Positions 31,238 through 35,923 of a stretch of DNA of 49,133 bases are shown here, in pieces. Position 1 is the first letter of the stretch. Every line of letters starts with the position of its first letter. The translations under genes and the position numbers were made by a program. Source of the stretch: Imperialibacter sp. EC-SDR9 (GTDB lineage: Bacteria; Bacteroidota; Bacteroidia; Cytophagales; Cyclobacteriaceae); contig NZ_LR701610.1 in NCBI RefSeq assembly GCF_902498805.1, forward strand, positions 1 through 49,133, read 5' to 3'. The notes under the pieces were generated by a model that saw nothing but the letters and a program-made list of their open reading frames with translations, made no database searches and was not told the DNA's origin.

Positions 31238-32918
31238 AAATCGGTATCTAAATAAAGCTTTTCTTTCAGTTTAAGCAGCAAAGGCTGCTTCTCGGCCAGG
31301 TAGTTGAACTTCTCCTTGTCAGTATAGAGTCTCTGCTTTAATTCTGCCTCTTTAATCGTTATCCGCAGTGTGATAGTTGGGTTCGAAAGCTCCTTTCTCA
31401 AAAACTGAACTAGCTCAGTTTCCTCTACTTTCAAAAATTTACGTTCAATGTCTGTAGACAGCTCTATTTCAACCACCGACTCCTCTCTCTTCAGCAATGG
31501 CTTCTTGAAAATCATCTTCAGTGAGTCGGAAATTTTGCCCGCTGATTTCTGCAGCGCAAATTTCTGCCAGGCTTCGGCGAGTTGGTCTAGCGTGTAATCG
31601 GACGAAGGATGCTGACTAACAGCCTCAGCCTCGTGGGCGTCATCCGGCTTCGCTTCCTGCACTACTTCCTTCCTTTCCGCCTTGACGGGAAAAATGCTCG
31701 GGGTTTCTTTCTTCTCCGTGCCGCTCTTGTAGGTGGTTACAACCGGACGAGGTGCAGCTGTTCCTACTACACCATTGGTTTCGATGGGCTTTTCAGCTGT
31801 TAGCTCACTTTTTTTTTTGCCCCATTTTCAGGGGCGGGCAAGCTGGCTAGAGAAAACGCTGCGTTCAAATGCGTCAGCTTCATAAGCGCCAGCTCCACGT
31901 GAAGGCGTTGGTTTTTGCTGGCCTTATATTGTATGTCGCACTGGCTCAAAATGTTCAGCCCCGAGAGCAGGAAAGAAAGAGAGGTTTTCGAAGATTGGTC
32001 GCTATATTTTGTTTTGATGCTCTGCGCCACCTGCAAGAGTGAAATCGTTTCCTTGTCTTTGCAAACCATCAAATTGCGAAGATGCTCGCTGAGCCCATTG
32101 ATAAAATTGTGCCCATCAAAGCCGCTTCTGATTATTTCATCAAAAATGAGCAGTACGCCTGACAGGTTTTCTTCCAAAAAGAAATCTACAACCTTAAAAT
32201 AATAGTCGTAGTCAAGAATGTGGAGGTTCTTGATGGTGTCCTGATAGGTGATTTTGTTGCCAGACGAAAAGGTGACAATCAGGTCGAAAATGGAAAGTGC
32301 ATCTCTTAGAGCACCATCTGCTTTCTGCGAGATCAGGTGCAGCGCTTCTTCTTCAGCCTCAATCCCTTCATTCTTGGCAATTTTTTGCAACTGAGTCGTA
32401 ATGTCCGAAATCTCAATCCGGTTGAAATCATAAATCTGACAACGGGAAAGGATGGTGGGGATCACTTTGTGCTTCTCTGTGGTAGCCAAAATAAAAATGG
32501 CATAAGACGGTGGCTCCTCCAGGGTCTTCAAAAACGCATTGAAGGCCTGGGTGGAGAGCATGTGCACCTCATCGATGATATATACTTTGTAGTTGCCCTG
32601 CTGGGGTGGGTACCGCACCTGATCGATCAGGTTCCTGATGTCGTCGACCGAGTTGTTGGAAGCGGCATCAAGTTCGTAAATGTTCAGGTTGTTGCCAGTA
32701 GCCAGCGGATTAGCGTTGTCGAATCCGTTGATCATACGGGCGACAATACGGGCGCAGGTAGTTTTGCCTACGCCTCTGGGCCCGCAAAACAGCAATGCCT
32801 GGGCCAGATGATTCTGGTCGATGGCGTTTTTAAGGGTGGTGGTGATATGCTCCTGACCTACAACCTCATCAAAACCAAGGGGACGATATTTTCTTGCTGA
32901 TACTACAAAGCTTTCCAT
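31234..32918 (-). CDS. dnaX: DNA polymerase III subunit gamma/tau (clamp loader), long form through a -1 frameshift
   Basis: The start at 32918 gives MESFVVSARKYRPLGFDEVV, the standard DnaX N-terminus. Frame 0 holds the AAA+ ATPase: Walker A GPRGVGKTT at 46-54, Walker B in VYIIDEVHML, and sensor residues in ILATTEKHKVIPTILSRCQI. It ends after 372 residues at ...KKKVS (stop 31800-31802). A run of ten A residues (31809-31818 on the minus strand) precedes the stop. Shifting to frame -1 there opens an uninterrupted reading frame (SELTAEKPIETNG...) through a linker and a C-terminal DnaX domain (YTLDQLAEAWQKFA...) to 31234, giving about 561 residues. The gene thus encodes short gamma-like and long tau-like forms. 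The zinc-binding cysteines of E. coli DnaX are absent, as is common in Bacteroidota. Confidence 0.88.
31800..32918 (-). CDS. dnaX: DnaX short form (gamma-like product)
   Basis: This is the in-frame product of dnaX if no shift occurs at the A10 run. It has 372 residues with the complete AAA+ and collar-like helical domain III (RLHVELALMKLTHL), ending two residues after three Lys codons. Its size relative to the long form matches the gamma/tau ratio of other dual-product dnaX genes. Confidence 0.7.
   Translation of the reverse strand: MESFVVSARKYRPLGFDEVVGQEHITTTLKNAIDQNHLAQALLFCGPRGVGKTTCARIVARMINGFDNANPLATGNNLNIYELDAASNNSVDDIRNLIDQVRYPPQQGNYKVYIIDEVHMLSTQAFNAFLKTLEEPPSYAIFILATTEKHKVIPTILSRCQIYDFNRIEISDITTQLQKIAKNEGIEAEEEALHLISQKADGALRDALSIFDLIVTFSSGNKITYQDTIKNLHILDYDYYFKVVDFFLEENLSGVLLIFDEIIRSGFDGHNFINGLSEHLRNLMVCKDKETISLLQVAQSIKTKYSDQSSKTSLSFLLSGLNILSQCDIQYKASKNQRLHVELALMKLTHLNAAFSLASLPAPENGAKKKVS
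31809..31818 (-). promoter_or_regulatory. A10 slippery run in dnaX
   Basis: Ten consecutive A residues on the coding strand (GGGGC-A10-GTGAGC) sit just before the frame 0 stop, preceded by a GGGG that could act as an internal Shine-Dalgarno-like stimulator. The site suits either ribosomal -1 slippage or transcriptional slippage, as known for dnaX in E. coli and Thermus. Confidence 0.75.
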
Positions 32919-33407
32919 GGGGCACTCTCTATCGAGCAGGCAATTTATCCTGAATCGGAAATTAAATGAAATGAAAGAGGAGTTAATATAAGGGAGGAGG
33001 AGAAAAGTTATCCACAATTAGAGCCACTTAAATATTGGCTGAATTAACAAATTGCACTAACAGCATCGCTCTTATTACGCCTGTGATGAAGCTTAGAATA
33101 TAACCGTCCGCATGTTCTGCATCTTAATTGACCAATTGTTCTGACAGAAATGTGACTTTTACCGTTTAGAAAAACAAGGCTTTTTAAAGCCTTGAGCAAT
33201 GCCTCTCAAAATTAAATCGCAAGATTTGCGAGACATACAGCTATTAGCAGAACGTAATTGAGCGAAAACCATTGGAGAAAATCACATAGCACTTAAATAC
33301 ACTTTTCTGATACATAGAAATGCTTTAGATTGATTTAAAATATTCAAAGGATATCGCAAGCGGTTCATGTTGTCAAATCAATTATAACAAGCGACTCAAA
33401 TACAACT
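32919..33407. other. Intergenic region between dnaX and the PARIS-like gene
   Basis: This 489-base AT-rich region has no gene. It holds a 9-bp hairpin (CAAGGCTTT/AAAGCCTTG, 33175-33194) and a small inverted repeat TCGCAA-GAT-TTGCGA (33217-33231) that could be an operator for the downstream defence gene. No TAnnTTTG box was found before that gene. Confidence 0.4.
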
Positions 33408-35318
33408 ATGAAAGAAGAACTGAAGCCTTTCATTGATTTTTTTTCCAGTGCAAAAAGAGATCTAAATCTCGAGCGAGAGGTTGCTTTCGAAGTTGGGTGC
33501 TCCGAAGCAGCGCTTCAGATTTTAGATGAGGCTATATTTGCGTCAGGCATTGTTGAGGAAAAATTTACGATCGGGCATCTAAAAATAAACCACGTCAACC
33601 AGTTTCATCCCAATATTAGCTCCATCCAAGGTGCGCTTCGATTCAGGGGACAACCTGATTCAAGTTTCGTTCGCCAACAAGATGACGACTGGAAAAATGA
33701 TGCTAAGAAGTTAATTCAACAAGCTAGTGCGCAGATATCTTTTCAACTTCAACAATTAAATTTCAACCTAGCCTTCTTTGAAAAAATTGGGTATCTGAGT
33801 GGTCACATAGTAGCTATCGGTGCAAATGGCAGCGGTAAAACTACTTTGTCAAACTTATTTAAAACCTACCTCGGAGACAATGGGGTCGTTATTTCAGCAC
33901 AAAGAATTCTTTTGGTACCCAATTTCGATTCCATATCGAATCCCACTTATACCGCAAATGAGCTAAGAGACTCACAAGCACGTGATAAAACCAACAAGCA
34001 CCATGGTGAATTTGGCCACTTACAAAATGAGTTTGCAATTTTATTAAAAAATCTACTGGCTGATAATATATCAGCTGCCACTGCTTACAGGAAAAGAGCA
34101 TTCGAATTGTCAGAGGAGGGTGGTGCTATCAGGGAACCAACCCCGACCAATCTTGACAAGACATTTACTATTTGGAATACTTTAATTGAACACAGAATTA
34201 TTGACTGTGCTGACGGAATGAACATAACCGCCAAGCCTCAAGAGGGCAAAGATTACCCTGCCGTTCAAATGAGCGATGGAGAAAAGGTTATGCTGTATCT
34301 CATTGCCCAAGTTTTGCAGGCACCAGCCAATGGGTTTATCGTCATAGATGAGCCGGAGATGTATCTCCATAAGACTATATTAAAAAAACTTTGGGATACG
34401 CTTGAAGCAGAGCGGCAGGATTGCCTTTTCATCTATTTAACGCACGATCTTGATTTTGCCACGAGCAGATCCACAGCAAAAAAAATATGGATAAAGTCGT
34501 TTAGTCATCCTGATAGATGGGAAATAGAAGATATTCCTGAAAATGAAATTCCAGAAACTCTACTATTTGAACTGCTTGGTAGTAGAAAAAATATACTATT
34601 CTGTGAAGGCCAAAAGGGTAGTATTGATGAAAAAGTGTTGTCGATAATTTTACCTGAATTTACTGTAATGCCAGTTGGATCTTGCTTTGAAGTGATCAAT
34701 CATACAAAGGCTTTTAACAGCTTGCGAAACGTGAATACTCGAGCTTTTGGCATCATAGATTCGGATCATCATGATCAAACACGGTTAGTCAAGTTGGTTA
34801 GCGATAAAGTCTTTTCACTCAAAGTCGCTGAGGTTGAAAACTTGTTCCTAGACGAGAAGTTTTTGAAGTTGATGGCTGCTCAGCTATTAGTTGACAAAGA
34901 TTTAGTTCAAAACATAAAGCATGATATTATAGCAGAGTTTAATAAGCTAAAAGAAACTCAAACTGCTCACTATATCAGCACCAAGATAAATTACTATTTT
35001 AAGGATTCACACGTCTCAAGAGGTAATAGACTTGAAGAGGTAGAGAGTAATTTCAAAAAATTTACTGAAAGAGTGGATGTAAACAAGTGGTATAAGGCAC
35101 GCATTGAACTTTTAGACAAAATCGTAATGAACGGAGAATATGAGTCCGTTATTTCTATATTTAATAATAAAGGGCTGCACCCAGTGGTGTCTCGACACTT
35201 CAAGATTTCAGATTTCACAGAACGTTGTATTAAACTTTTGCAAAGCTCCAAAGACTCTCGAGAATGCATTTTAGCCCATATGCCGACCGAGATAAGAGAG
35301 GCCGGGACAAGCCGATAA
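33408..35318 (+). CDS. Fused AAA/ABC-type ATPase-DUF4435 (TOPRIM) protein, merged PARIS-like defence gene
   Basis: The 636-residue protein joins two domains. The N-terminal ATPase has Walker A AIGANGSGKTT (about 136-146), a signature-like MSDGEKV (288-294), Walker B FIVIDEPEMYL (310-320) and an H-loop THDLD (345-349), the AAA15/ABC ATPase plan of AriA. The C-terminal part from about 395 reads ILFCEGQKGSIDEKV (Glu400), MPVGSCFEVI and GIIDSDHHD (Asp451, Asp453), the acidic residues of a DUF4435 TOPRIM domain as in AriB. In PARIS, AriA senses phage anti-restriction proteins and releases the AriB nuclease, which cuts host tRNA; merged forms are known. The gene stands alone, is AT-richer than its neighbours and lies 203 bases outside the 3' end of ssrA, a common insertion spot. 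OLD-type nucleases are the main alternative, but the DUF4435 motifs favour PARIS. Confidence 0.82.
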   Translation: MKEELKPFIDFFSSAKRDLNLEREVAFEVGCSEAALQILDEAIFASGIVEEKFTIGHLKINHVNQFHPNISSIQGALRFRGQPDSSFVRQQDDDWKNDAKKLIQQASAQISFQLQQLNFNLAFFEKIGYLSGHIVAIGANGSGKTTLSNLFKTYLGDNGVVISAQRILLVPNFDSISNPTYTANELRDSQARDKTNKHHGEFGHLQNEFAILLKNLLADNISAATAYRKRAFELSEEGGAIREPTPTNLDKTFTIWNTLIEHRIIDCADGMNITAKPQEGKDYPAVQMSDGEKVMLYLIAQVLQAPANGFIVIDEPEMYLHKTILKKLWDTLEAERQDCLFIYLTHDLDFATSRSTAKKIWIKSFSHPDRWEIEDIPENEIPETLLFELLGSRKNILFCEGQKGSIDEKVLSIILPEFTVMPVGSCFEVINHTKAFNSLRNVNTRAFGIIDSDHHDQTRLVKLVSDKVFSLKVAEVENLFLDEKFLKLMAAQLLVDKDLVQNIKHDIIAEFNKLKETQTAHYISTKINYYFKDSHVSRGNRLEEVESNFKKFTERVDVNKWYKARIELLDKIVMNGEYESVISIFNNKGLHPVVSRHFKISDFTERCIKLLQSSKDSRECILAHMPTEIREAGTSR

Positions 35319-35407
35319 GGCCCGTAAACGCCGCCACTGTCAGGCGCACTGCCGCTTTCCATCCATCAGCTCCCCGGAGTGGCGCCGGAGAGGACTGAGC
35401 GTTAAGA

Positions 35408-35426
35408 ATCGCTCCAGTGGAGCGAT
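35408..35426. repeat. 19-base palindrome between the PARIS-like gene and ssrA
   Basis: ATCGCTCCA-G-TGGAGCGAT is a perfect inverted repeat with 9-base arms. It is a possible REP-like unit or a recombination or terminator element. No second copy was noticed in the window. Confidence 0.5.
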
Positions 35427-35521
35427 GTTAAATAATGGGACAGCTGCCACAAAAGCTGCCCCATCCGTTTCAAAAAACCATAAAATCAGGCCCAAAAGCC
35501 CAAAAACAAACATTTCTACAG

Positions 35522-35923
35522 TGGAGCCGGAGGGAGTCGAACCCTCGTCCAGATAAGGGAAAAATGTACCGTCTACATGCATAGTTACCGATTGAATTTT
35601 CGACTGCTTGCCGGTAGGCAACATACCAACGCACAGCTTAGCCACTTAATTTCGCAGGTGCTTAGTAGCCTCGCACCCACTAGTTCAACCATGTCGACAC
35701 CCAAAATCAGCACCGGAAGAACGAGGCACTGGTGGATGTGGCTGGGGAATCTCGCTAGAGACTCAACCCTTTAAGCCTTTACCTCAACGTTAAGTTAAGA
35801 TTAAGCAGCCATGGCGTAATTAGATTCGCCAATTGTTGTTTGAGTGAATTGCTCACGGATGTACACTCATCACCCGGCACGCAAGCACAAAATCCGTCCT
35901 TACTGTCAAAACCAGTCGGCCCC
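35522..35923 (-). ncRNA. ssrA: tmRNA (ssrA)
   Basis: The 5' end GGGGCCGACTGG (from 35923) pairs with the 3' end CGGCTCC-A (to 35522) to form the tRNA-like acceptor, with one G-U pair. The T arm GGAGG/CCTCC-type stem encloses GTTCGACTC. CCA is not encoded. The 402-base length is normal. The mRNA-like part at 35801-35830 encodes GESNYAMAA followed by TAA. tmRNA rescues ribosomes stalled on broken mRNA and tags the peptide for proteolysis. The AMAA ending and the tag length fit Cytophagales. Confidence 0.96.
35801..35830 (-). other. tmRNA tag-peptide reading frame
   Basis: The resume codon GGC at 35830 begins a nine-codon tag, GESNYAMAA, ending with TAA at 35803-35801. The terminal hydrophobic-Ala-Ala is the ClpXP-type degradation signal. 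Confidence 0.9.

What the first reader, a model, noticed from the sequence alone, without database searches (positions are those of the whole stretch)
33408..35923. Merged one-gene PARIS-like defence system placed beside ssrA
One 636-residue protein carries both an ABC-type ATPase (AriA-like) and a DUF4435 TOPRIM nuclease-like domain (AriB-like, Glu400, Asp451, Asp453). It is AT-rich, isolated, and sits 203 bases from the tmRNA 3' end, a favoured insertion site. PARIS itself is known, including merged forms; a Bacteroidota representative with ssrA linkage and a short ATPase part would widen the family. PARIS cuts host tRNA, so a link to a ribosome-rescue gene is functionally suggestive, though position alone does not prove it.
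Basis: partly seen in the sequence, partly recalled or inferred. Interest (0 to 1): 0.72.

Follow-up and report, generated by a model that had tools for sequence, protein, structure and literature searches.

The report
One-gene PARIS-type anti-phage defence protein
A bacterium carries a single gene that fuses both halves of a known anti-virus defence system (PARIS); its place beside a ribosome-rescue gene looks accidental, but it belongs to a branch of the family with an extra, fast-changing front part that may be the virus sensor.

Summary
The gene is real and the family call holds. Window 33408-35318 (+) encodes a 636-residue merged AriAB (PADLOC AriAB E 9e-116; Pfam AAA_21 and DUF4435 over cut-offs). 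Glu400 and Asp453 are present in 53 of 53 aligned rows, Asp451 in 52. Merged PARIS is published (Rousset 2022, passages). The ssrA idea is not supported: the genes are convergent, no copy of the ssrA end flanks the gene, no integrase, and 0 of 54 and 1 of 20 surveyed loci of relatives hold a tmRNA. The slot varies: the one congener held has another gene there and no copy of this one. Proteins with it form one clade (36 rows, support 100/100, tree built without it), and it is less alike than both catalytic domains in 630 of 630 pairs. It may be the trigger sensor (inference). Unless its chain is cut, a fused effector cannot be released as in two-gene PARIS, so activation is testable. Solved AriB was not reached by sequence or fold.

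The parts
33408..35318 (+). merged AriAB (PARIS) gene, 636 aa, stop codon included
   Evidence: ORF; PADLOC PDLC02982 AriAB E 9.2e-116; PHROG 25246 E 2.8e-157
33408..33797 (+). N-terminal helical domain (residues 1-130), found in the long-form clade, no family match
   Evidence: predicted helices 2-28, 33-54, 60-76, 93-126; clade; low conservation; nothing covering it
33801..34574 (+). ABC-type ATPase domain (AriA-like), residues 132-389: Walker A 138-145, signature 289-292, Walker B 314-317, His346
   Evidence: Pfam AAA_21 45.3 bits (best stretch 275-347) and ABC_tran 25.3 bits (134-316); conservation
34587..35255 (+). DUF4435 / Toprim domain (AriB-like), residues 394-616; E400, D407, D451, D453, E477
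   Evidence: Pfam DUF4435 36.1 bits; PADLOC AriB E 3.6e-9; model pLDDT 93.7, pTM 0.87
35377..35426 (+). single remnant of a repeat that occurs three times at the same place in the congener
35486..35503 (-). terminator-like hairpin behind ssrA
   Evidence: consensus match only; 5 such sites found, 2.5 expected in shuffles
35519..35923 (-). ssrA (tmRNA), convergent neighbour, not part of the system

Best explanation
It is a stand-alone, single-chain PARIS defence gene, probably acquired horizontally, in a variable intergenic slot next to ssrA. Most likely mechanism: the ABC-type ATPase domains assemble and hold the C-terminal Toprim nuclease inactive; a phage protein binds the sensor part (possibly the extra N-terminal helical domain); the assembly rearranges so that Toprim domains of neighbouring chains pair and cut host tRNAs, which stops translation and phage growth. 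Shown here: the domains, the conserved active sites, the clade, the variable site. Taken from published two-gene PARIS: trigger sensing, tRNA cleavage, growth arrest. Inferred: that the merged form does the same without releasing its effector, and that the N-terminal domain is the sensor. The ssrA neighbourhood is position only.
For: PADLOC AriAB E 9.2e-116, AriB E 3.6e-9; AAA_21 and DUF4435 scores over the 27-bit thresholds that Rousset et al. used for two-gene PARIS (passages, scores; their separate profile for fused forms was not available here). All 36 long-form members match PADLOC AriAB at 1e-10 and both Pfam families at 0.01. K144, H346, E400, D407, D453, E477 in 53 of 53 rows. A basic residue at 434 in 47 of 53 rows and 36 of 36 long forms, 34 residues after E400; in E. 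coli AriB K60, needed for defence, is also 34 after E26 (PMC12409363, sections read). Absent from the congener, which has a different gene there. The nearest relative among 59 related genomes, 61%, is in another family of the order, while the two own-family members with good matches are at 54% and 45%; the tree agrees.
Against: No function was tested. The C-terminal profile does not reach solved AriB, and the C-terminal model's best PDB match is an OLD Toprim region, weak (6njx, E 0.06, probability 0.80); AriB is not among the 50 rows printed. The full-length model's best PDB matches are retron PtuA and OLD/GajA, with TM-scores to the query of 0.26 or less in the 50 rows printed. The A2 profile does hit solved AriA (E 3.3e-6), but ABC-F and retron ATPases score better (9.4e-10, 2.1e-9), and the single sequence does not reach AriA. 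No NCBIfam cut-off is reached. Residue 438 (offset of AriB K64) is Ser here though K/R in 31 of 36 long forms. Only one congener genome was available.
Confidence: 0.68

Rival explanations
1. It works like a class 1 OLD protein: a single-gene ABC ATPase plus Toprim that cuts DNA, not tRNA; the PARIS label reflects domain order only.
For: Single gene with ATPase then Toprim; the best, weak fold match of the C-terminal model is an OLD Toprim region (6njx), and OLD 6p74 is second for the full model. A 2023 review says it is unclear whether single-gene AriAB fusions differ from class 1 OLD proteins (PMC10568477, passages).
Against: PADLOC AriAB 9.2e-116; the best non-PARIS model is mad3 at 3.3e-14, the retron ATPase-Toprim model 7.7e-6 and GajA 6e-5 (25 of 42 rows shown). 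Pfam gives DUF4435 and no other Toprim-named family at E up to 1. Basic residue at the AriB K60 offset in 47 of 53 rows.
Confidence: 0.2
2. The gene is functionally tied to ssrA, for example regulated with it or protecting or using tmRNA when tRNAs are cut.
For: Adjacency of about 200 bases; PARIS acts on tRNA (literature).
Against: Convergent orientation and a terminator-like hairpin between; tmRNA in 0 of 54 and 1 of 20 loci of relatives; in the congener the slot holds a different gene.
Confidence: 0.03
3. It is cargo of an integrative element that used the ssrA 3' end as attachment site and has since lost its integrase. (Not exclusive of the best explanation: it concerns how the gene arrived.)
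For: The gene lies on the 3' side of ssrA; the congener has other cargo there plus three repeat units whose first bases resemble the ssrA end by eye; one remnant here, none elsewhere in either genome at 3 or fewer mismatches. Another relative (G002) has an ssrA 3'-end copy 3.9 kb downstream.
Against: No copy of the last 22 nt of ssrA at 4 or fewer mismatches elsewhere in the window or in the congener's stretch, so the repeats themselves fail that test; no integrase; relatives often sit beside ordinary genes such as cobW genes, thrC, an ATP synthase gene.
Confidence: 0.2
4. A decayed or silent copy with no activity.
For: Residue 438 is Ser where 31 of 36 long forms have K/R.
Against: Full-length open frame and the tested catalytic residues intact.
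Confidence: 0.05

Closest known systems
PARIS, single-gene AriAB fusion of the AAA_21 + DUF4435 type (Rousset et al. 2022, PMC9122126)
   Same: Same two domains fused in one protein; same PADLOC AriAB model.
   Different: Carries an extra ~125-residue N-terminal helical domain that no PADLOC, Pfam, NCBIfam or PHROGs match covers in this protein.
Two-gene PARIS of E. coli (AriA hexamer + AriB tRNase; PMC12409363; AriA in 8ux9, 8v45)
   Same: ABC ATPase with a profile match to AriA (E 3.3e-6, though other ABC ATPases score better); Toprim acids; basic residue at the K60 offset.
   Different: AriB is released to dimerise in the two-gene system; a fused effector cannot simply be released. No sequence or fold match to solved AriB was obtained.
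Class 1 OLD nucleases (6p74)
   Same: Single gene, ATPase then Toprim.
   Different: DUF4435-type Toprim; OLD-like models match far more weakly; DNA cleavage untested here.
PHROG 25246 (phage 'ABC transporter' family)
   Same: E 2.8e-157 over residues 109-622.
   Different: The match begins after most of the N-terminal domain; a family built from phage proteins.
Protein of Oenococcus phage phi9805 (two records of one phage)
   Same: 29.5% identity over residues 114-621.
   Different: Phage-borne; the only phage hit of 50,697 records searched at 1e-10.

Membership tests
PARIS (merged AriAB) | AAA_21 or AAA_15 ATPase domain at or above threshold | tested here: met
   AAA_21 45.3 bits, threshold 27
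PARIS (merged AriAB) | DUF4435 domain at or above threshold | tested here: met
   36.1 bits, threshold 27; PADLOC AriB E 3.6e-9
PARIS (merged AriAB) | Both domains fused, matching the curated AriAB model | tested here: met
   PDLC02982 E 9.2e-116 over residues 132-624
PARIS (merged AriAB) | Score with Rousset's own profile for AAA_21 + DUF4435 fusions | not testable with these tools
   profile not held; its thresholds are quoted
PARIS (merged AriAB) | Intact ATPase motifs and Toprim acids | tested here: met
   K144, H346, E400, D407, D453, E477 in 53 of 53; D451 in 52; E315 in 51
PARIS (merged AriAB) | Similarity to solved AriA | tested here: inconclusive
   8ux9 and 8v45 AriA by profile at 3.3e-6 and 4e-6, but ABC-F and retron ATPases score better; the single sequence does not reach AriA
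PARIS (merged AriAB) | Similarity to solved AriB | tested here: inconclusive
   not reached by profile; best fold match is OLD Toprim, weak
PARIS (merged AriAB) | Phage defence triggered by an anti-restriction protein, tRNA cleavage | not testable with these tools
   needs experiment
Class 1 OLD | OLD-type Toprim family and OLD ATPase as best profile | tested here: not met
   searches give DUF4435 and AriAB as the covering families; GajA (OLD relative) only 6e-5
ssrA-integrated mobile element | duplicated ssrA 3' end flanking the cargo | tested here: not met
   no copy at 4 or fewer mismatches in 22 nt within the window
ssrA-integrated mobile element | integrase gene in the insert | tested here: not met
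   no other ORF over 122 aa between dnaX and ssrA

The most novel reading that the evidence does not exclude
The gene belongs to a distinct clade of one-chain PARIS, not described in the papers I could search, in which a fast-evolving N-terminal helical domain is the phage-trigger sensor, and in which the Toprim effector is switched on inside the assembly without being released, unlike two-gene PARIS. The clade travels as a lone gene among ordinary genes, in hosts labelled with six phyla.
Probability: 0.3. Interest if true: 0.6.

Novelty: new variant of a known kind. Interest (0 to 1): 0.36.

Why it matters
Two-gene PARIS is switched on by releasing AriB from AriA. A single-chain form has to solve the same problem without release, or by cutting its own chain, so it is a simple test of whether release is needed. 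If the N-terminal domain is the sensor, comparing variants in laboratory systems would show which phage proteins each one reads. As a locus beside ssrA the case is ordinary.

Tried and rejected
First scan of genome contigs with the single sequence: 12 pattern matches, no relative; the scan with alignment A1 gave 62 loci. Functional ssrA link: disfavoured on orientation, hairpin and lack of conservation. Clean 'empty site': not available, because the congener's slot holds another gene and repeats. Sequence and fold routes to solved AriB gave nothing firm. N-terminal domain: no match covering it in Pfam, PADLOC, NCBIfam; PHROGs with the domain alone E 0.27; best PDB profile hit E 0.019, taken as chance. 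Viral fold library: the 50 rows printed are mostly ABC/SMC-type ATPases. Plasmids: 52 of 72,556 records matched, none over 80% of the query. A literature search for six fusion phrases found 0 papers; DUF4435 is in 5 papers, two of which I opened for passages. All these cover open-licence papers only.

Rows left out of the 53-row alignment A3 (window plus 52 of the 75 loci L115-L189 examined): split frames L129, L140; L135 (742 aa); truncated L142; fragments L153, L154, L160, L165, L167; L147, L159, L184 (taken as near-copies by length and score only); weak or odd L169-L176, L186, L188, L189. A5 and A6 also left out L137. The A1 search was seeded with long forms, so the long/short ratio says nothing about abundance. 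At E 1e-3 the AriAB model also rings in 6 of 14 control genomes, so I count only strong matches.

Full report
Observation. The ORF at 33408-35318 (+) is open for 636 residues, and ssrA lies at 35519-35923 on the other strand. The gene is at 38.9% GC against 45.2% for the window; 7.2% of 473 equal-sized stretches of the window are as low. So the described feature is there; it is AT-rich, but not exceptionally so.

Family. Pfam finds AAA_21 (45.3 bits, cut-off 27) and DUF4435 (36.1 bits, cut-off 27). PADLOC finds AriAB PDLC02982 at 9.2e-116 over residues 132-624 and AriB at 3.6e-9. PHROG 25246 matches at 2.8e-157 but is named only 'ABC transporter'. No NCBIfam family reaches its cut-off; the best, an ABC-F family, has 34 of 380 bits. 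Rousset et al. 2022 (PMC9122126, passages) found two-gene PARIS with these two Pfam families at 27 bits each, and fused forms with profiles of their own, which I could not run; they report both forms together in 5.2% of genomes. The protein is therefore a merged AriAB, a form already in print. With the AriAB model, 11 of 390 genomes of the order have a match at 1e-30 or better (counted from its list) and 9 of 395 of the phylum at 1e-25, with 0 of 14 controls.

Active sites. In the 53-row alignment A3, K144, H346, E400, D407, D453 and E477 are present in 53 of 53, D451 in 52, E475 in 51, E315 in 51. AlphaFold2 gives pLDDT 89.4 and pTM 0.61 for the whole chain and pLDDT 93.7, pTM 0.87 for residues 390-636. 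E400 follows the first strand of the domain and D451/D453 follow the third, the usual Toprim arrangement (recalled). I had no coordinates, so I did not measure whether the acids cluster. Position 434 is K or R in 47 of 53 rows and in 36 of 36 long forms. It lies 34 residues after E400; in E. coli AriB K60, needed for defence, lies 34 after E26 (PMC12409363, sections read). Offset 38 (AriB K64) is K or R in 31 of 36 long forms, but Ser here.

Results against a plain AriB label. The C-terminal profile does not find solved AriB. The best fold match of the C-terminal model is an OLD Toprim region at E 0.06, and the whole model is nearest to retron PtuA and OLD proteins with low TM-scores. AriA is found by the A2 profile (3.3e-6), but several other ABC ATPases score better, and the single sequence does not find it. 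[quoted passage not shown] I therefore keep a DNA-cutting rival at 0.2.

Before the Walker A motif lie about 125 residues predicted as four long helices at high confidence. No match in Pfam, PADLOC or NCBIfam covers them, PHROGs and PDB profile searches give nothing convincing. Relatives come in two forms: Walker A near residues 113-142 or, with few exceptions, near residue 30. A tree built only from residue 132 onward separates 36 long from 17 short rows on one branch, support 100/100, in 100% of 200 bootstrap trees. So the domain was gained, or lost, once among these rows. Long forms carry labels from Bacteroidota, Pseudomonadota, Elusimicrobiota, Planctomycetota, Spirochaetota and Bacillota; some are metagenome bins, and two rows (L152, L162) have long branches. 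Among all 630 pairs of the 36 long forms the N-terminal part (1-122) is less alike than both other domains in 630 of 630; means 17%, 50% and 44%. Pairs are not independent, and the alignment of so divergent a part is unsure. Fast change outside the active sites fits a sensor in an arms race, but also a loosely constrained helical spacer. I did not find this clade described in the searches (listings of open-licence papers, passages or sections of four of them).

Place in the genome. Of 59 genomes searched, own included, 8 had any match at 1e-3. Only G052 (61%) and G024 (54%) have near-full-length relatives; G025 has one lacking the N-terminal part and G033 a distant one. The one congener (G001, complete) has none. 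There the order LysM protein, response regulator, dnaX, ssrA, glycosyl hydrolase is the same (92-97% protein identity; families), but the dnaX-ssrA gap holds a different 246-residue gene with no Pfam match at 1e-5 and three repeat units spaced 118 and 119 bases. One remnant of the repeat remains in the window; no other copy was found in either genome at 3 or fewer mismatches. The 246-residue gene is absent from the window's genome. The slot is thus variable. I looked at ssrA in 17 stretches, window and congener included. In eight other genomes of the family dnaX lay in the stretch too (G002, G010, G016, G017, G024, G025, G030, G036) and is divergent from ssrA in 8 of 8; in the other seven stretches no dnaX was found; in this genus the two genes run the same way. 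A local inversion would bring the ssrA 3' flank, the side where elements usually integrate (general knowledge), between dnaX and ssrA. G002 has a copy of the ssrA end 3.9 kb downstream, which looks like such an integration; 16 of the 17 stretches, the window among them, have none, though the stretch of G025 reached only 1.3 kb.

Is ssrA linkage a trait of these genes? In 54 loci of named genomes (up to 8 kb flanks, many shorter) 0 have a tmRNA and 4 have a tRNA (L144, L153, L160, L163). Five loci occur in both sets; G025 is one of them, and its flank in the first set ends before the tmRNA. I listed the neighbours of 15 relatives and gave 20 ORFs beside ten of them to Pfam. 8 of 20 have no match at 1e-5; the rest are ordinary genes (a cobW pair, thrC, ATP synthase gamma, OMP decarboxylase, SHOCT, DUF3667), one SUKH, one YhcG-type nuclease, one AAA_21 + DUF4276 pair and one IS200-like transposase; no integrase among them. 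The picture is a lone gene among ordinary genes. The tree does not follow the hosts: the window protein groups with Flavobacterium, Taibaiella and unclassified Bacteroidota rows, away from the Cyclobacteriaceae (L141) and Shiella (L118) rows. This suggests transfer; it does not prove it.

Mechanism. Published two-gene PARIS: an AriA hexamer holds three AriB; phage triggers release AriB, which dimerises and cuts tRNA (PMC12409363, introduction read). In a fused chain, release needs cleavage of the chain or must be replaced by rearrangement. I think rearrangement within the assembly is more likely, because there is no partner gene beside it; I did not look for a processing site. This is inference. 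The convergent ssrA has its own terminator-like hairpin (consensus match only), so I see no sign of joint expression.

Verdict. An ordinary find as to family and place; a modestly interesting variant as to architecture.

Noticed in passing
L040:10051-10400 and window 35377-35426: Three repeat units spaced 118 and 119 bases in the congener, their first bases resembling the ssrA 3' end by eye (not within 4 mismatches of 22), each with a hairpin-like palindrome; one remnant in the window; no other copy found in either genome.
   Followed up: partly
L046:10223-14168: ssrA 3' end repeated 3.9 kb downstream (85 bases, 80%) with four ORFs between, one J-domain-like by eye: looks like a small element integrated at ssrA.
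   Followed up: partly
window 31800-35923 and L040: ssrA and dnaX run the same way in this genus but are divergent in 8 of 8 other genomes of the family where both lay in the fetched stretch: a local inversion.
   Followed up: partly
L116:10092-11908: A two-gene AAA_21 + DUF4276 cassette lies directly behind a merged AriAB, followed by a gene that looks like threonine synthase by eye; L149, from another branch, has its AriAB directly behind thrC. Possible defence hotspot.
   Followed up: no
L041:5017-6853: An AriAB whose frame overlaps the end of a short ORF that looks by eye like a piece of a restriction enzyme, and which lacks the N-terminal domain.
   Followed up: no
L116:6562-7068: An OMP decarboxylase match that covers only positions 71-220 of 221 in a 169-aa ORF next to AriAB; the gene may be cut short.
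   Followed up: no
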